A DNA stretch of 32,796 bases from Anaerolineales bacterium (lineage in GTDB: Bacteria > Chloroflexota > Anaerolineae > Anaerolineales > Anaerolineaceae), in contig JAGVAB010000072.1 of the NCBI GenBank assembly GCA_020060485.1, forward strand, positions 1 to 32,796. Direction: 5' to 3'. The notes beneath the pieces were generated by a model that was not told the DNA's origin, ran no database searches, and saw nothing but the letters and a program-made list of their open reading frames with translations. Shown here piece by piece: positions 214 to 31,118 of this stretch. The translations under genes were made by a program, and so were the position numbers. The first letter of the stretch is position 1, and each line of letters opens with the position of its first letter.

Positions 214-1299
214 TCATTTCCATTCCGGGTCGGGGATGAAGGCAAACACTGTGCCGGGGTATTTATCGGTGGCGATCAGGAAACCATGCAAGTTGCGGGC
301 GTCGTCATCCAGGCGGGCCAGGGCCTCCCAGTTGCGCGGAATGCGCAGCGGCGAAAGCTGGATGTAGATGGGCGGCCGGCCTGTGTGAACGATGCCTTGC
401 GGGGTATATTGCAATTCCAGCAGACGTTCCACGTTTTCCTGGCGGGCATGGCTGCGGCCTTCGCCAAATTGCATGGCGAGCGGGTCGTCATCGGAGTGGT
501 AGACTGGTTCGCCCAGCCAATGCATATTGATCACCCAGAAGCGGCCATCTTCGTCGGGGGCGGTGGCGTCGGTGATGCGGTATTCGATGTGCGGCAGGGG
601 AATGCGCAGCGGCCCTTGCAGGTCGAGGGTGAAGACGCGCCCAAAGGGTTCCGTGTTGATCCTGGCTCCATTGACCTCGTACAGGGTGATTACCCTGTCG
701 CCGGCCACGAAGATGGTTTCATCGGATTTATTGTTGCGCCTGGCCTGGGCCTCCAGGGGCTGGATGCTGGTCATATCCACGCTGGCACTGCTTAGATCGG
801 GGGCGATCTGCCCGCTGACCAGAAAGCCGGTGGCGCCGCGCCGGTCTGCGGCTTCGATGGTCAGGAACATTTTTTCGCCGTGAAAAGCAATGCCTTCAAA
901 GCCGTCAAAATCATCGATGACCTGTTTCAGGCCTGGGGCAGAGAAAGGGATCATTTGCGGGGTGAGCGGGCCGTTGATCTCTCCATTCAGGTAGGCAGCC
1001 AGGTTTTCTTTGGACAGGGCAAACAAGGCGCCATCGGCGGATTTCTGGCCGTCGTAAAACCCCGGATACTGGGGCACCAGGATGAGATTGTCGCCGTACC
1101 AGGCCATGCTGGAGATTTCGGAGCGGTAGGAGGAAAGCGGCTTTGCCAGGGGGATGCGCTGGAATCTGGCTTCGGTCAAGGGCGAGGCCGGGTAGGGCGA
1201 ATTGGATGGGAAGATCCATTCCTGCTGCCAGGCCAGCACTACCAAAGCTGCCAGCAGGCAGATCAGCGCCAGAATGAAATACCATTTTGTTTTTTTCAT
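214..1299 (-). CDS. Membrane-anchored propeller-like protein, possibly phytase/esterase-like
   Basis: A 361-aa protein starting MKKTKWYFIL. AAGGA sits about 7 nt before this ATG; an in-frame extension further upstream lacks a ribosome site and is Cys/Arg-rich, so it was rejected. Residues 5-25 form one membrane segment with no lipobox. The rest is soluble and rich in short beta-like stretches. Patterns such as GFEGIAF around residue 155 and DEDGRFWVIN in the second half resemble the extracellular esterase-like phytase domain and SdiA-regulated propellers, but this is recognition by eye only. The leader contains two strong hairpins. No neighbour suggests a substrate, so the safest name is a conserved membrane-anchored protein of unknown function. 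Confidence 0.6.
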   Translation of the reverse strand: MKKTKWYFILALICLLAALVVLAWQQEWIFPSNSPYPASPLTEARFQRIPLAKPLSSYRSEISSMAWYGDNLILVPQYPGFYDGQKSADGALFALSKENLAAYLNGEINGPLTPQMIPFSAPGLKQVIDDFDGFEGIAFHGEKMFLTIEAADRRGATGFLVSGQIAPDLSSASVDMTSIQPLEAQARRNNKSDETIFVAGDRVITLYEVNGARINTEPFGRVFTLDLQGPLRIPLPHIEYRITDATAPDEDGRFWVINMHWLGEPVYHSDDDPLAMQFGEGRSHARQENVERLLELQYTPQGIVHTGRPPIYIQLSPLRIPRNWEALARLDDDARNLHGFLIATDKYPGTVFAFIPDPEWK

Positions 1300-1645
1300 T
1301 TTCCATCCTTGGGCAAACATGTGCGCCGCGTGGTAAACGAACACGCGGCGGCAAAATTGGCCGGGAAGCTGTCCTGCTGATGTTGATTGTAACACCAGCG
1401 GCAGCTTCCCGGTTGATGGTATTGATGGGGGGTGCACGAAAAGTATGTAGAAAATCACGCCCTAATTGCTGTCGTTGCGAAGGAACGACCCGCACCTGCG
1501 GTGGGGCAGGTGAGCGACTGTGGCCGCGAAGCGTCCAAGCCGTGATGGGGATTGCCACGTCGGGTGAAACCCTCCTCCAACGACAAAATCTACAACATTT
1601 TAGGGCACCCTTGGTGGGTCTAAAGGGTGTTTTTGCTGGAAAGGA
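1300..1645. other. Intergenic region with hairpins and a REP-like segment
   Basis: No convincing gene. On the minus strand it is the leader of the gene starting at 1299. It holds a perfect 9-bp hairpin (arms 1324-1332 and 1342-1350), an 11-bp inverted repeat (1361-1371 with 1402-1412) whose loop contains a TACAAT-like -10 box (1386-1391), and a REP-like stretch around 1470-1565 with a CACCTGC/GCAGGTG hairpin (1493-1512). A hairpin at about 1600-1630 is followed by TTTTT on the plus strand, but no plus-strand gene uses it. Confidence 0.5.
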
Positions 1646-5483: not shown

Positions 5484-5555
5484 CAGCCAACTTTGTTTTT
5501 TTATTCGGTATCATTAAGTTTTGAATATCGAAGTTTTCATGGCAGGAGGCTTAAC

Positions 5556-7424
5556 ATGATGTGGCAGAAACTGAACCCCCCAGACGTCATCCGCACACTG
5601 TTTGAAAGTGCGCCAAAGGTTGTGGTTGCCCGCACGCAGCAAGACCTGATAGATCTGGCCTGCGGCAGCCCGGACTCTGATTATTCTGAAGTTGCCTACG
5701 ATATCCCCGGCCAGGGGAGGGTAGTTGAAGCAACTGTGGCCAGGGTGCGTAACGGGATCGCAGTCAATTATATTGATCCGTACATGCGCCGCCGGGACCC
5801 GGACTCGCTGGTGGTTGGCGATGAGCTTGACACCGACAAGCCTACTTTTAAAGAGAATTATGGCGAAGATTTTGGGCCAGTACGTGCAGCAACGCTCGAG
5901 TGGCTAAAAACCCAGGAATTGGCTGCGTTTGCTTTCACCGCCGGAAAGCCGGGCATGGGCGCGGACGCGCTGGCGATTGTGCCGCTGAATGCCGCTTTCT
6001 TTGCTTTGGGCCTGGCCATGCTGCAGGGCATGATCCCGCTGGACGAACTCCCTGCTGAGTTTGCACCCAAGGCTGTTTTGATCGTTGCGCCGCCTTTCCG
6101 CCACACGTACTTTGGTGGCAAGCAGATCGTGGTGCATAACCGTACCGAAGACCTTTATGAAATATTTTCGTTTAATCTCTATCCCGGCCCCAGCGCCAAA
6201 AAAGGCGTGTATGGTGTCTTGATTGACATTGGTTCGCGTGAAGGCTGGGTGGTACCGCACTGTTCGGCGGTGATGGTCATTACCCCTTACGACAACTCGA
6301 CCATCATCATGCACGAAGGCGCCAGTGGCGGCGGCAAAAGTGAAATGCTTGAACAGGCGCACCGCGAGCCTGATGGCCGCCTGTTCCTGGGAGAGAACAC
6401 CATCACCGGCGAGAAGCGCTACCTGCAGATTCCGCGCACTTGCGATTTGCAGCCGATTGCTGATGATATGGCCATCTGTCATCCATCGATCCAGCGCAAT
6501 CACGGTCGCATCCGTTTGACCGATGCCGAGGATGCCTGGTTCCTGCGGGTCAATCACATCAATGCGTATGGCACCGATCCTTCTCTGGAGCAGATCACGG
6601 CGCAGCCTTCACAGCCGCTGTTGTTCTTGAACATCGATGCCGTTCCCAACAGCCGGGCGTTGATCTGGGAGCATATTCAGGACGCCCCGGGCAAGCCTTG
6701 CCCGAACCCGCGGGTGATCGTGCCGCGCAACGAATTTAAGAACATACTGGACGGAGCAGCCACAATCGATGTGCGTTCCTTTGGCGTGCGCACCCCGCCC
6801 TGTACCAGGGAAAAGCCCACCTATGGCATCATCGGCCTGTTCCATGTTCTGCCGCCGGCGCTGGCCTGGTTGTGGCGGCTGGTTTCGCCGCGCGGCTATG
6901 ACAACCCCTCGATTTTGGATACGGAAGGCATGAGCAGTGAAGGCGTAGGATCCTACTGGCCGTTTGCCTCTGGCAAGCGCGTCCGCCAGGCCAACCTGCT
7001 GCTGGACCAGTTCACCGATTACCTGCAAATGCGTTATATCCTCACCCCCAACCAGTACATTGGCGCATGGCGGGTTGGCTTCATGCCGGAGTGGGTCGCC
7101 CGTGAATACCTGGCGCGGCGCGGTAATACCAAATTCCGTCCTGAACATATTCGCCCGGCGCGTTCATCTTTGCTGGGTTATGCCCTGCACTCGATCCACG
7201 TGGAAGGTCAGCAGATCGCCCGCTGGTTCCTGCAGGTGGACACCCAGCCGGAAGTCGGCGTGGAAGCATACGATCAGGGCGCACGCATGTTGAGGGAATT
7301 CTTTTGCAAGGAGCTGGAAGACTTCAATACTCCCGAAATGGTGCCCCTTGGCCGCAAGATCATTGAGTGTTGTCTGGATGATGGCAGCCTGGCAGATTAC
7401 GAAAAATTGATTGTCTCTGAGTAA
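5556..7424 (+). CDS. DUF4914 family P-loop protein, PEPCK-like
   Basis: A 622-aa cytosolic protein. Two ATGs stand in tandem (5556 and 5559) after GGAGG with about 6-nt spacing; the first was chosen. A further in-frame upstream start at 5493 lies too close to the promoter to be used. The central motif EGASGGGKS (residues 254-262) is a Walker A loop of the kind found in HPr kinase and phosphoenolpyruvate carboxykinase, followed by a run of Asp/Glu-rich strands. The C-terminal third contains EGVGSYWPFASGKRVRQANL, a conserved block of DUF4914 proteins. The family has no established reaction that I know of; a kinase or nucleotide-dependent carboxykinase-like role is an inference from the P-loop. 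It is probably monocistronic, ending in a terminator. Confidence 0.8.
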   Translation: MMWQKLNPPDVIRTLFESAPKVVVARTQQDLIDLACGSPDSDYSEVAYDIPGQGRVVEATVARVRNGIAVNYIDPYMRRRDPDSLVVGDELDTDKPTFKENYGEDFGPVRAATLEWLKTQELAAFAFTAGKPGMGADALAIVPLNAAFFALGLAMLQGMIPLDELPAEFAPKAVLIVAPPFRHTYFGGKQIVVHNRTEDLYEIFSFNLYPGPSAKKGVYGVLIDIGSREGWVVPHCSAVMVITPYDNSTIIMHEGASGGGKSEMLEQAHREPDGRLFLGENTITGEKRYLQIPRTCDLQPIADDMAICHPSIQRNHGRIRLTDAEDAWFLRVNHINAYGTDPSLEQITAQPSQPLLFLNIDAVPNSRALIWEHIQDAPGKPCPNPRVIVPRNEFKNILDGAATIDVRSFGVRTPPCTREKPTYGIIGLFHVLPPALAWLWRLVSPRGYDNPSILDTEGMSSEGVGSYWPFASGKRVRQANLLLDQFTDYLQMRYILTPNQYIGAWRVGFMPEWVAREYLARRGNTKFRPEHIRPARSSLLGYALHSIHVEGQQIARWFLQVDTQPEVGVEAYDQGARMLREFFCKELEDFNTPEMVPLGRKIIECCLDDGSLADYEKLIVSE

Positions 7425-8680: not shown

Positions 8681-9892
8681 TTATGGCTGGTAGATGCGCG
8701 TATCGGGTTGAAAGGCTGCCCAGGAAAACCAGAAGTGATTAACCGACACAACGGGGGTCAAAAGTTCACCTGAGGAGGCGCGGCCGAAGATATCCCACGA
8801 TCTTTCAGATGCGTTATCGACGATCTGGCCATCTTTGCTGACAAATGTCAAGACTTGACCGTTGATTTCACGAGAAAAGGCGGCGGCGGTACCAATATCC
8901 CGTCCCAGGGCAATTTCCCTGCTGTCCAGCGCCGAGGCAGTGCCAGGTGTCCAGAAAATGGCTATGGGTTGACCACCCACTTCATCGTTGATCACGCTGA
9001 TCTCCCTCAGAAGGTCATACGGGTAGGCCACGGATTCGCTGTTCCATTCCAGGGTCAGGACACGCGCCATTGGCAGGAGTTCGCCAGGTGTGGGTGGGCC
9101 ATCATAGAGGAAGGGTGGACGGTTGACGTCGTCATAACCGGCGTACGGGTTTTGCCCATAGGGACGTCCTAAACCGGTTTCTCGTGAAAGTACCTCACCC
9201 TGGGGGTAGCTGGATCTGAAATCTTGCCAGGCGATGATTGCAGCTGGGTAGAAAATCAGTTGGCTGCCGGTCAATTCCCCAGCGATGGCCTGACCAGTGG
9301 CTTGCTGCCACCAGGTTTCCGTCTGGCGGTCATACATGATCAGGTTACTGAAGCGCAGGCGGCCGGTGGTGCCAAAGTCCAGCACCCGGCCATCAAAAGT
9401 GCGTTCAAAGGCAATGGCAGTGTTGCATAGCGGGCAAAAGGTGACTGATACTGGTACTCCGCCCAGGGTGTCATTGACAATCTCGTGCCACATCAGTATC
9501 TGGATGGGATAGGCTTTGGCCTCTCCGGCGGCTTCCACCAGAATCACCGGTTCAACATCGGCCAGCCATTCATCGGCTTCTGCTACGGTAACGAAAGCCG
9601 GCTGGTCAATGGAAGGAATGCCATCTTTGGGCGGGCCGCCGGAGAGGATTTCATCGTAGTTGACGATGGTCTTGCTGAAATCGGTGCTGAATTCATTCCG
9701 GGCGCCGCCGGGCGGCTCTTGACCGGTTTCCATTTCCTGCATGGAGAGGGTTTCTTGGGCAGCAGGTTGTTCTTCCAGTGCCGGGGCAGGCGTTTCACTT
9801 ATTGCTGGCGGGTTGGCATTCAGCGCCGGGGCGCAGGCTGCCAGCAAAATGCTGAAGAGGGCAAAAATCAGGAGGTATGGTTTGGGGTTCAT
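8681..9892 (-). CDS. DUF3179 domain lipoprotein
   Basis: A 403-aa protein with a lipoprotein signal ending in LLAAC (Cys at residue 20), a ~50-residue Pro/Glu-rich linker and a large extracytoplasmic domain. VTFCPLCNTAIAFERTFDG followed by GTTGRLRFSNLIMYDRQTETWW is the hallmark of DUF3179; the CPLC pair could bind a metal or form a disulfide. The later block WTPGTASALDSREIALGRDIG is also characteristic. The family function is unknown. AGGA lies about 10 nt before the ATG. The gene converges with the deaminase gene and is followed by a strong terminator. The 80 nt that separate it from the flavoprotein gene upstream leave co-transcription open. Confidence 0.88.
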   Translation of the reverse strand: MNPKPYLLIFALFSILLAACAPALNANPPAISETPAPALEEQPAAQETLSMQEMETGQEPPGGARNEFSTDFSKTIVNYDEILSGGPPKDGIPSIDQPAFVTVAEADEWLADVEPVILVEAAGEAKAYPIQILMWHEIVNDTLGGVPVSVTFCPLCNTAIAFERTFDGRVLDFGTTGRLRFSNLIMYDRQTETWWQQATGQAIAGELTGSQLIFYPAAIIAWQDFRSSYPQGEVLSRETGLGRPYGQNPYAGYDDVNRPPFLYDGPPTPGELLPMARVLTLEWNSESVAYPYDLLREISVINDEVGGQPIAIFWTPGTASALDSREIALGRDIGTAAAFSREINGQVLTFVSKDGQIVDNASERSWDIFGRASSGELLTPVVSVNHFWFSWAAFQPDTRIYQP

Positions 9893-10755: not shown

Positions 10756-11372
10756 GGTGTCAACTCCTCACGGTTTTCTTTTAGCCCTTGCAAAAGAAGA
10801 CTGGTGATCATTTGCGGATCAAAGTAGATATGGCCTTGCTCATCCTGAGGGATGCTGACGCCTAGATAAATGGTCAGCAGCAGGGTGGCCGTGCAGCCAA
10901 TATCCATGCGGCGGAATGTGCCGTCGGCCATGCCCGGCTCCAGGATGTCGTTCATCATGACCGCAAAGAGGGGCTGGTAAACGCGGGTGAGATGGGCTTT
11001 GTGATTTTCATCTGCACCGTACAGGGTGTGAACGATGACCTGCATGGGGTAGGGATGGGCTTCCACATAAGCGAAGCCAGCCTGGAAAAAGCGCAGCAGG
11101 CGTTCCTCGGTGGGCTGGATTTTATGCACGGCGGCGGCAATGAAGGCGATGTGGTCGTTGGCGGCGCGCTCGATCAGCTCCAGCAGCAGGGCTTCCTTGC
11201 TGGCAAAGTAATTGTAAACCGTGCCTTTGGCGAAGCCCGCCGCCTGCGAGATGCGGTTGATGTTGGCGGCATTGTAGCCCTGGCGGGCAAATTCCTCGGC
11301 GGCCGAATCAAGCAGCTTTTGACGGGTGTCGCTGGCAGTTTGTTCACTTTCGGATATTTTGAAACGAGGCAT
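10752..11372 (-). CDS. TetR/AcrR family transcriptional regulator
   Basis: A 206-aa regulator with an N-terminal DNA-binding domain: TRQKLLDSAAEEFARQGY, then the helix-turn-helix NINRISQAAGFAKGTVYNYF, followed by a ligand-binding all-helical C-terminal domain. The start was set at 11372 (MPRFK) because the in-frame ATG at 11420 lies upstream of the -10 box of a near-consensus promoter and so could not be in the transcript; the ribosome site before 11372 is weak. A 20-bp inverted repeat at the predicted transcript start is the likely autoregulatory operator. The gene forms an operon with the iron-sulfur flavoprotein and is divergent from the msrA gene. The ligand is unknown. Confidence 0.88.
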   Translation of the reverse strand: MPRFKISESEQTASDTRQKLLDSAAEEFARQGYNAANINRISQAAGFAKGTVYNYFASKEALLLELIERAANDHIAFIAAAVHKIQPTEERLLRFFQAGFAYVEAHPYPMQVIVHTLYGADENHKAHLTRVYQPLFAVMMNDILEPGMADGTFRRMDIGCTATLLLTIYLGVSIPQDEQGHIYFDPQMITSLLLQGLKENREELTP

Positions 11373-11386
11373 GGCATTGTTCTTAA

Positions 11387-11406
11387 ATGGGTGGGCGGTC
11401 ACCCAT
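11387..11406. promoter_or_regulatory. Probable TetR operator
   Basis: Inverted repeat with 7-bp perfect arms (ATGGGTG / CACCCAT) and a 6-nt centre. It directly follows the -10 box of the tetR promoter and covers the predicted transcription start, the expected place for a repressor site. Confidence 0.72.
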
Positions 11407-11434
11407 ATTATAATCAACATCCTGTAATTGTCAA
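11407..11434 (-). promoter_or_regulatory. Near-consensus promoter of tetR
   Basis: TTGACA (11434-11429), 16-nt spacer, TATAAT (11412-11407) on the minus strand: both hexamers match the sigma-70 consensus exactly. Confidence 0.85.
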
Positions 11435-11445
11435 GGAAAAGGTCA

Positions 11446-11474
11446 TTGAAGCAGGCAGCAGCTTCTGTTACAAT
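11446..11474 (+). promoter_or_regulatory. Promoter of the msrA selenoprotein gene
   Basis: TTGAAG (11446-11451), 17-nt spacer, TACAAT (11469-11474). It is back to back with the tetR promoter, the two -35 boxes lying 11 nt apart, so regulator binding could influence both. Confidence 0.7.
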
Positions 11475-11513
11475 TCCTAAACTTATTCGTATTGGTGTTC
11501 AATAGAGGTAGAA

Positions 11514-12278
11514 ATGAAAACACACGTTCGATGGATCTTCCCGATCCTGCTGGCGGGGCTGTTGCTCCTGTCAGCTTGTCAGCCGGATCTCCCGGCAAGT
11601 GAAACCACCCCCCCTCAGGAAAACCGGCAGTCAAAACCTGAAGTACCGGCCATTGACCTGGCGCAGCCGGATGATTTTGCCACAGCCACCTTCTCGATGG
11701 GCTGATTCTGGGGACCTGACTCCCGGTTCGGGAGCATCCCTGGCGTGATCCGTACACGGGTTGGCTATGCTGGCGGTACCAGCCCGTCTCCCACGTATGG
11801 CAGGATTGGCGATCATGCTGAAACGATCCAGGTTGATTATGATCCAACGGTCATTGCTTATGAAGAACTGTTGACGCTGTTCTGGAGTTCTCATTCCCCC
11901 ATCTCACGCGCATCTTCACGGCAATATGCGTCAATCATTCATTATGCGACTGAAGTGGAAAAGCTGCTCGCAGAGCAGAGCCTGCAAGAGCAGGAAACAG
12001 CCCTGGGCAGGAAATTGTATACCGAGATCATTCCCCTGACCGGTTTTACCCTGGCCGAAGATTATCACCAGAAATACTACCTGCAAAACCAGGTCGGCCT
12101 GATGTCTGAATATGCCGCCATTTACCCGGTTTTCATGGATTTTATCGATTCCACTGCGGCGGCACGGGTCAATGGGTACGTGGGGCGCAATGGTTCCTTG
12201 GAGCAGTTAGAGGCAGAGATCGGACAGCTGGGGCTGTCGGACAAGGCGCAGGAGGCACTGCAGGGGTATCTAAAGTGA
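11514..12278 (+). CDS. msrA: Peptide methionine (S)-S-oxide reductase, probable selenoprotein lipoprotein (TGA = Sec64)
   Basis: Read through TGA 11703-11705, this is a 254-aa MsrA, which reduces methionine-S-sulfoxide in proteins. In MsrA the catalytic motif is GCFWG; here the frame reads G-TGA-FWG, so the TGA sits exactly at the catalytic cysteine (residue 64). Upstream is a lipoprotein signal (LLSAC, Cys22) and a Pro-rich linker. Downstream, in the same frame, are VGYAGGT, the GDHAE motif with the catalytic Glu, and HQKYYLQ. A SECIS-like hairpin follows the TGA. No other Cys occurs after the lipobox, so there is no classical resolving cysteine. GAGG is 5 nt before the ATG. Anchoring outside the membrane suggests repair of envelope proteins. 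The alternative is a nonsense mutation, but its position and the intact remainder argue against decay. Sec machinery is not in this window. Confidence 0.87.
11703..11740 (+). promoter_or_regulatory. TGA Sec codon with SECIS-like hairpin
   Basis: Right after TGA (11703-11705), the mRNA can fold into CUCCC-GGUUC-GGGAG (11720-11734), with a possible sixth G-C pair leaving a GUU loop. A lower GGGA/UCCC stem (11711-11714 with 11737-11740) is separated from it by an internal loop. The apical loop begins about 20 nt after the TGA and has G at its first positions, both features of known bacterial SECIS elements recognised by SelB. Confidence 0.75.
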
Positions 12279-22541: not shown

Positions 22542-24482
22542 TCAACCATAAAAATCCTGAAAAGTGAACAGAAGCCAGCTGGTGATCCATTGCAGGAAAA
22601 AGATCAATGATATGGCGGCAGGTTTACTGCGACTCAAGCGTAGTATTTCTTTGGCGGCTAACAGGGCCAGTACAGGCAGCATGAAGAGCCACAGGCGCTG
22701 CACTTCGCCATTGGTTTGGCCGAAGAGGTTCAGAGCGACATAGGTGAGCAGGAAGGCTGCGGCCAATTCGTCCACAGGCTGCGGCTGGCGGCGCAGGCAG
22801 GCGGCCACAGAGCGCCCCATCTGCACCAGTGCCAGCAGGATGAAGGGCATACCGCTCCAGGTGAGCATTTCGGCGTTGTTGAGCAGCAGGGCATATACCA
22901 CCTGTTCCAGGCCGGGGACGTAGTCTTTGGCCCGGCGGTGCTGGGCCATGGCGTTGGCGTAGCGCAGCAGGATGTCATAATTGAGCAGCCACTTGAAGAG
23001 CAGGAACATGACCAGCAGCCCGGCGGCAAAAGCCAGGCCGAGTTTTATGACTTCTTGCAGAGAGAGTGACTTGCGGTTGGAAAGAAAATGCAGGCCGAAC
23101 CACAGCGGGATGAGGGGTACCAGGGGCAGCAGCGAAAAACCGAAATACAGGGCAGCATAGGTTGCCAGACCAGCCAGTCCGGCCAACTGCCAGGAACGGT
23201 TTTGCAGGGCGCGCCAGGCCAGCCACAATACGGCGATGAAGATCAGGGGATAGAGTACCTGGTCGAGGAAGAGTGGGATGAGGAGCACACTGGGCAGGGC
23301 GATGTAGAGCATGGCCGAAAGCAGGCTTTCCTGCTGGCCGAGTTCCAGTTCGTGCGCCAGCCGGTAGAGGGGCAGCAAGACCAGAAAAGCAAGGAAAGGA
23401 AAGACATACGCGCTGAAGGTGGTCAGCGAAAGGAATCGCCCGGCGTTGTCGGCGGCAGGCAGGAAGAGGTTGGAAGCTTTTTGGGTGAGGATATAGACGG
23501 CCAGTACACCCGGCGGTTTGGTGCCCAGGTACCAGTCGCCGCCGTAGTCGGCTTCGTAGTTGGTGAGGGCATGCCACAGACCGGGGTCTTCGGCGGCGGC
23601 CTCGGCGTAGTTGTTGAAGACTGAATCGGCGTATTTGAGACGCAGAGATTCAAAACCACCGCCTGCCAGAAAGCCAAAGCTGATTTGCAGTCCAGCGCCC
23701 AACAGGATGAGCGTCACCAGATTGCGGCGGATATGTTCCGGGCGGCGCAAGACCAGCCAGACTACACCCAGGGCAGTGACCAGCATGAGCGGGAACAGCC
23801 AGATTGGCTGCGGGACTTCTTTTTGCCAGAAGTACCACTTCCAGCCGCGGATCACCGCAAAGGTCTTAAGCTGCAAGACCAGCACCGTCCAGTGGAAGAA
23901 GGCCGCCCCGCTTAACAGCAGCATAACGGCGGCCCGGCCAAAGGCGCCGTCTTTGCGCAGTTGGCGAAAGGCGGGCGCATAACCAGCCAGCCACAGGGCA
24001 AGGGTTTGCAGGGCCAGGGCGGTCAACCACAAGGTGAGGGGCAGCAGCCGCGGGTAGGTTGCGTATAGCCGCTTCACCAACATCAGCCATTGCGGCCGGG
24101 TGGAGAGGAATATCTCGGCAGACAGCGGCAGCGGAACAGAGAAGAAGAGGTGATAAGTAGCAGAGACTGCTGCCCCCAGTACCAGCAGGATGGTCAGGGA
24201 AAGCAGAAAGCCTTTTTGCAATAACAGGGTTTCGCCGTTCCGCAGCCATTTGGCCAAGGTTGGCTGCCCGGTGAGTTTTTGCCAGGCTGCCCAGACCATG
24301 AGGGCGGTCAACAGCAGGGCTGCGCCGGCCAGGGCAAGGCGCATGGCCGAGTAGCCCAGCAAGAGGGCGCCTTCTGCCGAGGGGTCCTTGAGCAGGAAGA
24401 CCAGTGCCAGCAGTCCTTCCAGGGCGGCCAGTGGGTAGAAAAGGGAAGAAATTTTTTTGGAAATGGGTGTGTCTGCCTGCAT
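22542..24482 (-). CDS. Polytopic membrane protein, possible ArnT/PMT-type glycosyltransferase
   Basis: A 646-aa protein with about 14 hydrophobic segments throughout. After the first five helices comes a large loop with NYEADYGGDWYLGTKPPGVLAVY, the kind of conserved loop seen in GT-C lipid-linked sugar transferases such as ArnT and PMT; these usually carry catalytic acidic residues in an earlier loop. Here YADSVFNNYAEAAAEDPG lies just before it. The sugar donor and acceptor are unknown. AGAGGA lies 6 nt before the ATG. It stands alone between the GGDEF gene and hppA. A role in cell-envelope glycan or protein glycosylation is inferred from fold only. Confidence 0.65.
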   Translation of the reverse strand: MQADTPISKKISSLFYPLAALEGLLALVFLLKDPSAEGALLLGYSAMRLALAGAALLLTALMVWAAWQKLTGQPTLAKWLRNGETLLLQKGFLLSLTILLVLGAAVSATYHLFFSVPLPLSAEIFLSTRPQWLMLVKRLYATYPRLLPLTLWLTALALQTLALWLAGYAPAFRQLRKDGAFGRAAVMLLLSGAAFFHWTVLVLQLKTFAVIRGWKWYFWQKEVPQPIWLFPLMLVTALGVVWLVLRRPEHIRRNLVTLILLGAGLQISFGFLAGGGFESLRLKYADSVFNNYAEAAAEDPGLWHALTNYEADYGGDWYLGTKPPGVLAVYILTQKASNLFLPAADNAGRFLSLTTFSAYVFPFLAFLVLLPLYRLAHELELGQQESLLSAMLYIALPSVLLIPLFLDQVLYPLIFIAVLWLAWRALQNRSWQLAGLAGLATYAALYFGFSLLPLVPLIPLWFGLHFLSNRKSLSLQEVIKLGLAFAAGLLVMFLLFKWLLNYDILLRYANAMAQHRRAKDYVPGLEQVVYALLLNNAEMLTWSGMPFILLALVQMGRSVAACLRRQPQPVDELAAAFLLTYVALNLFGQTNGEVQRLWLFMLPVLALLAAKEILRLSRSKPAAISLIFFLQWITSWLLFTFQDFYG

Positions 24483-29492: not shown

Positions 29493-29660
29493 CAGCACCA
29501 TTGCTGTCCTATTTACCTCAGATGATGAATTCACATTAATTCGTTTCTCTGCTGGTCGACGGGATGGCAAAGGAATGGGATTTGCAGAGAGGCTGGATGC
29601 GCCATCCAGCTTTTATTTGAAATAGTTCTTGCATGAATTGGTTTGGAAAAGGAGACCAGG

Positions 29661-31118
29661 ATGACAGGAAGAGAAAAAAGATTCCGGGCGCTATTGGTAA
29701 CCCTTTTGGTAGCTTTGGGTCTGGTGTTGTTTTTACAACCGGCAGCCGCCCTTGCGGCACCAGGGCAGCTGCCGGAAGTGGCAACTGACGGGAATGAAAC
29801 GGAAATCAGACTGGCAGCGCCGGTAACCCAGGCAGTTGAGCCGGCTGCCCCGGTGGTGATCTATTTGTTCTGGGGAGAAGGCTGCCCGCACTGCGCCGAG
29901 GCCGAGAAATACCTGATACCACTGGCTGAAGGAAATGAGCAGATTGAATTGCGCATGTATGAGGTTTGGAACGACAGGCTGAACCAGAATCTGTTCATCA
30001 AAATGGCAGAAAATTCTGGCTTTGAGCCACGAGGAGTGCCCACTATCTTTATCGGTAATCGCCACTGGGTGGGGTATTCTGATGTGATCCGCTCCGAGAT
30101 CCAGAAAACAATAGATGCCTGCCTGAAGAATGCATGTGTTGATGCAGGCGCTGGCATTATGCCGGGAGCGGCAGAACGGCCAGTCACTAGCCCTCCGCAG
30201 CCTGAGGTGAACGAGGGCGGTTCAAATCAAATCAAGCTGCCCCTCATCGGGACGGTGGATCTCTCAAAACAATCCTTGCTGATCAGCACGCTTCTCATCT
30301 CCTTTGTGGATGGGTTCAACCCTTGCTCAATCTGGGTGTTGACCATGCTGCTGGCGCTCACCCTGCATACCGGTTCCAGGAAGAAAGTCATTCTGGTGGG
30401 GGTGATCTTTGTGTCGGTTACGGCAGCCATTTATGCCCTGTTCATTGCCGGTTTGTTCACCATGTTCACCGTGGTCAGTTTTGTGGGTTGGATCCAGGTG
30501 GTGGTGGCGTTGGTGGCATTGTTCTTCGCCCTGGTCAACATCAAGGATTATTTCTGGTACAAGGAAGGTCTGTCCTTTACCATTGATGATGACAAAAAGC
30601 CGGGTATCTTTCAGCGCATGCGCCGCCTGATGGATGCCAGTCAATCCTTTTGGGGATTGGTGGGTGGAACGATCGTGCTGGCGGCAGGGGTCTCGCTGGT
30701 GGAGTTCTCCTGTACGGCCGGCTTCCCGGTGCTGTGGTCAAACCTTTTGGTTGCCCAGAACGTTGACGCCATAACCTTTGGCTTGCTTCTGCTGGTTTAC
30801 ATGGTGGTGTATCAACTGGATGAGCTGGGCATTTTCCTTGTGGCAGTGTTCACCATGCGCTCCACCAAGGTGGAGGAAAAGCACGGCCGAATTCTTAAAC
30901 TCATCGGCGGGGTATTGATGCTTGCTCTGGCCGGGGTGATGTTGATCAATCCTGACCTGATGGATAATTTATCCAGTTCGCTGATCGTCTTTGGTATTGC
31001 ATTTGGATTGACCATCCTGATCCTTCTGCTGCACCGGGTGGTGCTGCCCAGGATGGGTATTCATATCGGCACAGAGTTCACCGCCAAGTCCAGGAAGAAG
31101 AAACGCCATTCACAATAG
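29661..31118 (+). CDS. Thioredoxin-like/DsbD-like fusion, thiol-disulfide electron transporter
   Basis: A 485-aa membrane protein. An N-terminal signal or anchor (residues 8-30) leads to an extracytoplasmic thioredoxin-like domain with the redox pair C75-P-H-C78 in FWGEGCPHC and a cis-Pro loop RGVPTIFIG. After a Pro-rich linker come about six membrane helices of the CcdA/DsbD type, with the conserved membrane cysteines Cys222 (DGFNPCSIW) and Cys351 (EFSCTAGFP). Such proteins carry electrons from cytoplasmic thioredoxin to envelope targets. ATG 29661 was chosen for AAAGGAG 6 nt upstream; a TTG start at 29643 is less likely. It may reduce the Sec-MsrA lipoprotein (inference). A strong terminator follows. 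Confidence 0.88.
   Translation: MTGREKRFRALLVTLLVALGLVLFLQPAAALAAPGQLPEVATDGNETEIRLAAPVTQAVEPAAPVVIYLFWGEGCPHCAEAEKYLIPLAEGNEQIELRMYEVWNDRLNQNLFIKMAENSGFEPRGVPTIFIGNRHWVGYSDVIRSEIQKTIDACLKNACVDAGAGIMPGAAERPVTSPPQPEVNEGGSNQIKLPLIGTVDLSKQSLLISTLLISFVDGFNPCSIWVLTMLLALTLHTGSRKKVILVGVIFVSVTAAIYALFIAGLFTMFTVVSFVGWIQVVVALVALFFALVNIKDYFWYKEGLSFTIDDDKKPGIFQRMRRLMDASQSFWGLVGGTIVLAAGVSLVEFSCTAGFPVLWSNLLVAQNVDAITFGLLLLVYMVVYQLDELGIFLVAVFTMRSTKVEEKHGRILKLIGGVLMLALAGVMLINPDLMDNLSSSLIVFGIAFGLTILILLLHRVVLPRMGIHIGTEFTAKSRKKKRHSQ

What the first reader, a model, noticed from the sequence alone, without database searches (positions are those of the whole stretch)
11514..12278. Probable selenocysteine-containing MsrA lipoprotein
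TGA 11703-11705 stands exactly where the MsrA motif GCFWG has its catalytic cysteine. The frame stays open on both sides: lipoprotein signal before, complete MsrA domain after. A random stop or sequencing error would hit this one codon only by chance. Selenoprotein MsrA forms are known but rare, and I do not know of one that is a lipoprotein in this kind of organism. A standard annotation would split the gene or start it at GTG 11745, losing the active site.
Basis: partly seen in the sequence, partly recalled or inferred. Interest (0 to 1): 0.93.

Follow-up and report, generated by a model that had tools for sequence, protein, structure and literature searches.

The report
Selenium-dependent membrane-anchored methionine repair enzyme
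This bacterial gene has a stop codon exactly at the active-site position of a methionine-repair enzyme, and that codon is likely read as the rare amino acid selenocysteine, so the gene would make a selenium enzyme predicted to be lipid-anchored outside the cell membrane; many of its relatives in public gene catalogues appear to be cut off or misread at this spot.

Summary
Confirmed. Frame 11514-12278 is open except for TGA 11703-11705, at the catalytic residue (64) of an MsrA whose other listed active-site residues are present. It belongs to the MsrA subfamily with helical domain PF20939; the nearest solved protein is the Clostridium oremlandii selenoprotein MsrA. Of the best 80 of 368 genomic relatives, 75 carry TGA here; the TGA loci bear ten phylum names. 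A hairpin after the TGA meets the published bacterial SECIS model and covaries over 87 sequences (0.341 against 0.154 shuffled, reached by 0 of 500). Its wobble bases are nearly fixed in TGA genes, less so in Cys genes. No genome is held for the window, but 22 of 22 Chloroflexota relatives have SelB and 19 tRNA-Sec. The N-terminus has lipobox LSAC22; no Cys follows residue 64, so recycling outside the cytoplasm is open. Sec-MsrA is known; a lipid-anchored form was not described in the titles and abstracts that my searches listed. Many Cys relatives also look like lipoproteins (51 of 89 listed), so anchoring is not tied to selenium.

The parts
11446..11474 (+). promoter-like site TTGAAG-17-TACAAT with TG before the second hexamer (9 of 12); consensus match only
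11504..11509 (+). Shine-Dalgarno-like AGAGGT, 4 nt before the ATG
   Evidence: read
11514..12278 (+). MsrA lipoprotein gene, 254 residues with TGA 64 read as Sec, stop TGA 12276-12278
11514..11579 (+). predicted lipoprotein signal, lipobox LSAC with Cys22
   Evidence: prediction
11682..12098 (+). MsrA catalytic domain PF01625 (residues 57-195)
11703..11705 (+). in-frame TGA at the catalytic residue of the GUFWG motif
11708..11743 (+). bSECIS-like hairpin; conserved upper stem 11720-11725 with 11729-11734, apical loop GUU 11726-11728
11745..12278 (+). truncated standard ORF (177 aa, GTG start) that lacks the active site; the same start as in 18 of 120 listed database relatives
12150..12251 (+). 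selenoprotein MsrA helical domain PF20939 (residues 213-246)

Best explanation
The gene at 11514-12278 encodes a protein of the MsrA methionine sulfoxide reductase family whose active-site codon is an in-frame TGA that is likely read as selenocysteine, and whose lipobox would anchor the enzyme on the outer face of the cell membrane. Steps inferred: SelB carrying Sec-tRNA is recruited by the hairpin at 11708-11743 and inserts Sec64; the signal peptide is removed and Cys22 lipidated; Sec64, in a pocket with F65, W66, Y95, E103, Y138, H185 and Y188 and held by the helical domain, attacks the S-sulfoxide, releases methionine and becomes a selenenic acid. There is no resolving Cys, so that intermediate would be reduced from outside: by dimerisation through Sec64, then by an extracytoplasmic thiol reductant, as an external counterpart of the glutaredoxin route known for the C. 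oremlandii enzyme. The likely role is repair of oxidised methionines in exported proteins.
For: TGA at this codon in 75 of the best 80 loci. In three Chloroflexota searches every match at E 1e-40 or better (15 rows, 14 distinct genomes) has one internal TGA, at this codon. Hairpin: 92.4% of cells paired over 86 distinct sequences, 75 cells changed on both sides, covariation 0.341 against 0.154 (0 of 500 shuffles) and at most 0.156 when slid. It meets the bSECIS model read in PMC13188914: 3-nt loop with G first then U, 6-bp upper stem, 20 nt from the TGA, -19.8 kcal/mol. Wobble bases: C 85, G 83, G 86 of 87 TGA genes against 1, 3, 1 of 5 same-subfamily Cys genes. tRNA-Sec over the cut-off (all 65.8 bits or more) in 36 of 45 TGA genomes and 1 of 5 Cys genomes; SelB over the cut-off in 7 of the 9 TGA genomes left. 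Chloroflexota: SelB 22 of 22, tRNA-Sec 19 of 22. Model pLDDT 91.4; best PDB match 4lwj, TM 0.90 by target, 46% identity. Tree: inside a 100/100 group of 87 Sec and 5 Cys rows.
Against: The window's own genome is not held, so its Sec machinery is inferred from relatives. That machinery is also in 11 of 11 Chloroflexota genomes without a TGA MsrA match, while the three of 22 without tRNA-Sec are all TGA carriers (8 of 11 carriers have it): it is permissive, not diagnostic. The tRNA-Sec cut-off is reached in 5 of 14 control genomes. G001 and G047 showed neither factor over the cut-off. The hairpin alone ranks third of 52 in the window; folded singly, the TGA gene L029 prefers another fold; two of five covariation measures do not exceed the shuffles. 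Full-length listed relatives mostly bear Cys: 89 of 120 listed, although gene callers select for that. The helical-domain score is modest (28.9 bits, cut-off 23.7). Anchoring and recycling are untested; no widely shared neighbour gene; DsbD/CcdA-like and glutaredoxin families do not track the Sec form.
Confidence: 0.88

Rival explanations
1. Sec is inserted, but the protein is not a lipoprotein: it stays in the membrane by an uncleaved N-terminal helix, or is secreted or cytosolic.
For: By the rule used, 27 of 87 TGA forms have a hydrophobic N-segment without a lipobox-like Cys and 19 of 87 have none. In the C. oremlandii enzyme the catalytic residue is number 16 (PMC4333827), which leaves no room for a signal peptide.
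Against: The window has a basic n-region, a hydrophobic stretch and an LSAC lipobox.
Confidence: 0.1
2. The TGA is a random stop or a sequencing error in a Cys-MsrA gene, or the gene is a pseudogene.
For: Cys relatives exist (5 of 80 loci; 89 of 120 listed proteins).
Against: The same codon is TGA in 75 of 80 records; hairpin and wobble conservation; frame intact on both sides.
Confidence: 0.01
3. TGA is reassigned to Trp or another residue in this organism.
For: 13 of 120 listed relatives are printed as GWFWG.
Against: TGA is the stop of this gene and of 8 of 16 other main genes of the window; Trp would remove the nucleophile; the hairpin would be unexplained.
Confidence: 0.01
4. A functional shorter protein starts at GTG 11745.
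For: That ORF exists, and 18 of 120 listed relatives have this form.
Against: It lacks the catalytic motif, which is conserved upstream in frame in the loci.
Confidence: 0.02

Closest known systems
Clostridium (Alkaliphilus) oremlandii selenoprotein MsrA (PDB 4lwj, 4u66)
   Same: Sec in GUFWG, helical domain, no resolving Cys, same active-site residues; E 8.8e-59 and 7.8e-59 by sequence, TM 0.90 by target for the model
   Different: That protein has 209 residues with one Sec at position 16 and no Cys (PMC4333827, passages); the window protein has a lipoprotein-type signal with Cys22 and is likely from Chloroflexota
Other bacterial selenoprotein MsrA (Syntrophobacter fumaroxidans in PMC1794560; marine metagenome in PMC2398784; review PMC13188914)
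   Same: MsrA with Sec at the catalytic position (passages)
   Different: Localisation is not discussed in the passages seen; PMC1794560 counts 3 selenoproteins in Chloroflexi, and the passages do not say which
Surface methionine sulfoxide reductase SpMsrAB2 of Streptococcus pneumoniae with Etrx lipoproteins and CcdA (PMC3914529, search listing only)
   Same: Extracytoplasmic methionine sulfoxide repair; works-like analogue
   Different: Served by thioredoxin-family lipoproteins; that it is an MsrA-MsrB fusion that uses Cys is recalled, not from a call

Membership tests
Selenoprotein MsrA (helical-domain, 1-Cys type) | MsrA catalytic domain | tested here: met
   PF01625 E 4.6e-39; TIGR00401 111.5 bits, cut-off 108.1
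Selenoprotein MsrA (helical-domain, 1-Cys type) | C-terminal helical domain PF20939 | tested here: met
   28.9 bits, cut-off 23.7; 57 of 61 rows of A2 at E 0.01; helices within 207-253 of the model
Selenoprotein MsrA (helical-domain, 1-Cys type) | TGA at the catalytic codon | tested here: met
Selenoprotein MsrA (helical-domain, 1-Cys type) | bSECIS after the TGA | tested here: met
   model constraints and covariation
Selenoprotein MsrA (helical-domain, 1-Cys type) | no resolving Cys | tested here: met
   0 Cys after residue 64
Selenoprotein MsrA (helical-domain, 1-Cys type) | Sec machinery in the same genome | tested here: inconclusive
   own genome not held; most relatives positive
Selenoprotein MsrA (helical-domain, 1-Cys type) | Sec in the purified protein; MsrA activity | not testable with these tools
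   needs mass spectrometry, 75Se and an assay
Bacterial lipoprotein | basic n-region, hydrophobic stretch, lipobox with Cys | tested here: met
   MKTHVRWIFPILLAGLLLLSAC
Bacterial lipoprotein | lipidated Cys22 | not testable with these tools
   experiment needed

The most novel reading that the evidence does not exclude
A widespread class of exported, often lipid-anchored selenium MsrA enzymes, in about ten bacterial phyla, repairs surface proteins with a single Sec and no resolving Cys, using a still unknown extracytoplasmic electron donor; it has gone unseen because gene callers cut it after the TGA or read the TGA as Trp.
Probability: 0.5. Interest if true: 0.6.

Novelty: new variant of a known kind. 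Interest (0 to 1): 0.45.

Why it matters
It extends selenoprotein MsrA from the Clostridium enzyme, which has no room for a signal peptide, to what looks like an exported, lipid-anchored form in many phyla. It raises a testable question: what reduces a lone selenocysteine outside the cytoplasm, where glutaredoxin and its thiols are not expected (general knowledge)? It also points to an annotation fault: of the 120 listed relatives (of 6078 found), 18 start right after this codon and 13 print Trp at the catalytic site.

Tried and rejected
Redox partner by gene neighbourhood: ORFs of 90 aa or more within 4 kb in 103 loci gave no widely shared neighbour; apart from the gene itself (79 loci) and an antisense shadow ORF over it (23 loci), the largest cluster has 9 of 103 loci. 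A glutaredoxin with TGA for the first Cys of CPYC, joined to a PDZ domain, lies beside the gene in L012 only; one more locus (L028) has a Cys glutaredoxin 8.4 kb away, and the window has none. Glutaredoxin matches with one internal TGA occur in 9 of 19 TGA-MsrA Chloroflexota genomes and 4 of 11 others (counted; the place of the TGA was checked in L012 alone): no clear link. DsbD/CcdA family: 13 of 19 and 8 of 11 (counted): no link. The NF041383 model, which matches MsrA in its second half, is over its cut-off in 2 of 50 genomes, both with Cys-MsrA.

'Only Sec forms are exported' was considered and dropped: in the genome sample 1 of 16 Cys forms passes the hydrophobicity rule, but among the 89 listed Cys proteins 51 look like lipoproteins and 17 more have a hydrophobic segment. 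Hairpin energy alone: rank 2 of 52, not decisive. Viral contigs: no relative confirmed.

Limits: the 80 loci are the best of 368 confirmed and were picked by likeness to a Sec query. Dropped rows: three duplicate loci (L082, L096, L099). A2 holds 42 of 84 usable TGA loci, 18 truncated proteins and the window. The export rule is a home-made hydrophobicity threshold, not a trained signal-peptide predictor. Phylum names are NCBI's for record titles; 17 of 86 TGA loci have none. The tree's bootstrap had not settled and 43 of 100 inner branches are open.

Full report
OBSERVATION. The frame 11514-12278 reads through a single internal TGA (11703-11705) to a stop TGA at 12276-12278. Residue 64, the TGA, aligns with position 16 of the C. 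oremlandii MsrA, Sec in nature and Cys in the solved chain. The other active-site residues listed in PMC4333827 (passages) are present: F65, W66, Y95, E103, Q137, Y138, H185, Y188. The N-terminus MKTHVRWIFPILLAGLLLLSAC is a lipoprotein-type signal. There is no Cys after residue 64, so the mature protein would carry only the lipidated Cys22 and Sec64.

FAMILY. Pfam gives PMSR and MsrA_helical, the latter named for selenoprotein MsrA. By sequence the best solved chains are 7c13, 4u66 and 4lwj to 4lwm, E 7.7e-59 to 2.3e-57; the titles of 4u66 and 4lwj to 4lwm name C. oremlandii. AlphaFold2 on 61 sequences gave pLDDT 91.4, and Foldseek places 4lwj first, TM 0.90 by target, rmsd 2.3, 46% identity. 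The tree puts the window in a 100/100 group of 87 Sec and 5 Cys rows, poorly resolved inside; Sec/Cys needs 4 changes over the 103 rows.

THE TGA IS CONSERVED. In the genome collection 368 stretches encode a relative; of the best 80, 75 have TGA, 3 TGT and 2 TGC at this codon. With loci added later there are 87 TGA and 16 Cys rows. By NCBI names the TGA loci lie in Bacillota 24, Chloroflexota 20, Synergistota 6, Thermodesulfobacteriota 5, Myxococcota 4, Spirochaetota 4, Planctomycetota 2, Acidobacteriota 2, Actinomycetota 1 and Calditrichota 1; 17 have no name. In Chloroflexota samples the TGA form was found in 4 of 400 genomes (11 more of the 400 have a weaker match without a stop), in 9 of 15 of one order and in 2 of 301 of another. 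Among the 120 listed of 6078 database proteins, 18 begin at residue 78, 14 residues after the TGA, 13 print Trp and 89 print Cys at this site. The 18 are 66 to 95% identical over 69% of the query and include the closest ones; that they carry TGA is inferred from the cut, since their DNA was not read.

SECIS. The window hairpin has a 6-bp upper stem (11720-11725 with 11729-11734) and loop GUU, 20 nt from the TGA, -19.8 kcal/mol; 7 of 200 shuffles fold as well. It satisfies the four constraints of the bSECIS model in PMC13188914 (figure legend). On 87 TGA sequences (86 distinct) 92.4% of cells pair, the U-A/G-C switch at columns 19 and 31 is 40 to 38, and covariation is 0.341 against 0.154 shuffled (0 of 500) and at most 0.156 when slid. 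Two of five measures (pairs with a double change, further pair types) do not exceed the shuffles. Wobble columns 21, 24 and 30 are C, G, G in 85, 83 and 86 of 87, against 1, 3 and 1 of 5 same-subfamily Cys genes and 4, 6 and 5 of all 16; wobble columns 12, 15, 42 and 45 vary freely. Of seven sequences folded singly, the window, L010, L001 and the Cys gene L048 form this hairpin; L029 (TGA), L038 and L034 (Cys) prefer other folds. L048 lies in a genome with SelB and tRNA-Sec: possibly a fossil SECIS.

SEC MACHINERY. No genome is held for the window. Of 45 TGA genomes searched (of 75), 36 have tRNA-Sec over the cut-off, all at 65.8 bits or more against a cut-off of 47; of 5 Cys genomes, 1 (MAGs, stricter filters; 5 of 14 control genomes also pass the cut-off). 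SelB is over its cut-off in 7 of the 9 other TGA genomes, in 5 of 5 further TGA genomes, in 1 of 5 Cys genomes, and not in G058; G001 has a C-terminal stretch below the cut-off. The window is likely from Chloroflexota: of 120 listed relatives of its H+-pyrophosphatase six bear an organism name, five of them Chloroflexota, Chloroflexi or Anaerolineaceae and one just bacterium, all at 75% identity. In 22 Chloroflexota genomes, among them the five nearest by this protein (72 to 77%), SelB is in 22 and tRNA-Sec in 19. Eleven of these 22 have no TGA MsrA match, and the three without tRNA-Sec all have one, so the machinery permits Sec here but does not prove it.

LOCALISATION. By a simple rule 68 of 87 TGA forms have an N-terminal hydrophobic segment and 41 a lipobox-like Cys. 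Among the 89 listed Cys proteins 51 look like lipoproteins, 17 have a hydrophobic segment only and 21 neither. Export is thus a common trait of the subfamily and not of Sec alone.

MECHANISM. Shown: sequence, predicted fold, conserved residues, hairpin conservation. Inferred: Sec insertion, lipidation, catalysis, recycling, role. For C. oremlandii MsrA, thioredoxin does not serve, glutaredoxin does, and dimers form through the catalytic residue (PMC4333827 and PMC4479559, passages). An anchored enzyme outside the membrane would need another donor. In pneumococcus surface thioredoxin-family lipoproteins are redox partners of an MsrAB (PMC3914529, search listing), but neither CcdA-like nor glutaredoxin families track the Sec form here.

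LITERATURE. Selenoprotein MsrA is established. Searches for a lipoprotein or signal-peptide form (4 and 2 papers) and for Chloroflexi, Anaerolineae or Chloroflexota selenoproteins (6 papers each) listed none whose title or abstract start describes one. Of, 25 of 89 papers were listed. Only passages of PMC13188914, PMC9312934, PMC4333827, PMC4479559, PMC1794560 and PMC2398784 were seen; subscription papers are not held, and two earlier papers on this enzyme could not be opened.

VERDICT. It is very likely a Sec-MsrA with a predicted lipid anchor: a known enzyme family in a form and place not described in what I could search.

Noticed in passing
window 11372-11434: The TetR-type gene (minus strand) probably starts at 11372, not 11420. 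A 14-nt inverted repeat (11380-11393 / 11400-11413, 79%) overlaps the -10 of a 12-of-12 sigma-70-like promoter (TTGACA-16-TATAAT, minus strand), between it and msrA: a possible operator.
   Followed up: partly
L048:676-720: TGC in place of TGA with the SECIS-like hairpin intact, in a genome with SelB and tRNA-Sec: possible recent Sec-to-Cys change with a fossil SECIS.
   Followed up: partly
L012:10693-11211 (minus): A 173-residue glutaredoxin-PDZ protein with TGA in place of the first Cys of CPYC lies beside the Sec-MsrA; glutaredoxin matches with one TGA occur in 13 of 30 Chloroflexota genomes.
   Followed up: partly
NCBIfam NF041383 positions 141-257: The VPGUxxT thioredoxin-like (seleno)protein model matches MsrA in its second half, which suggests a thioredoxin-MsrA-like fusion.
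   Followed up: partly
window 214-1458 (-), 22542-24482 (-), 29643-31118 (+): Long ORFs (414, 646 and 491 aa) without a Pfam match at E 1e-5.
   Followed up: no
window 5493-7424 (+) and 8681-9892 (-): Strong matches to families of unknown function, DUF4914 (1035 bits) and DUF3179 (358 bits).
   Followed up: no
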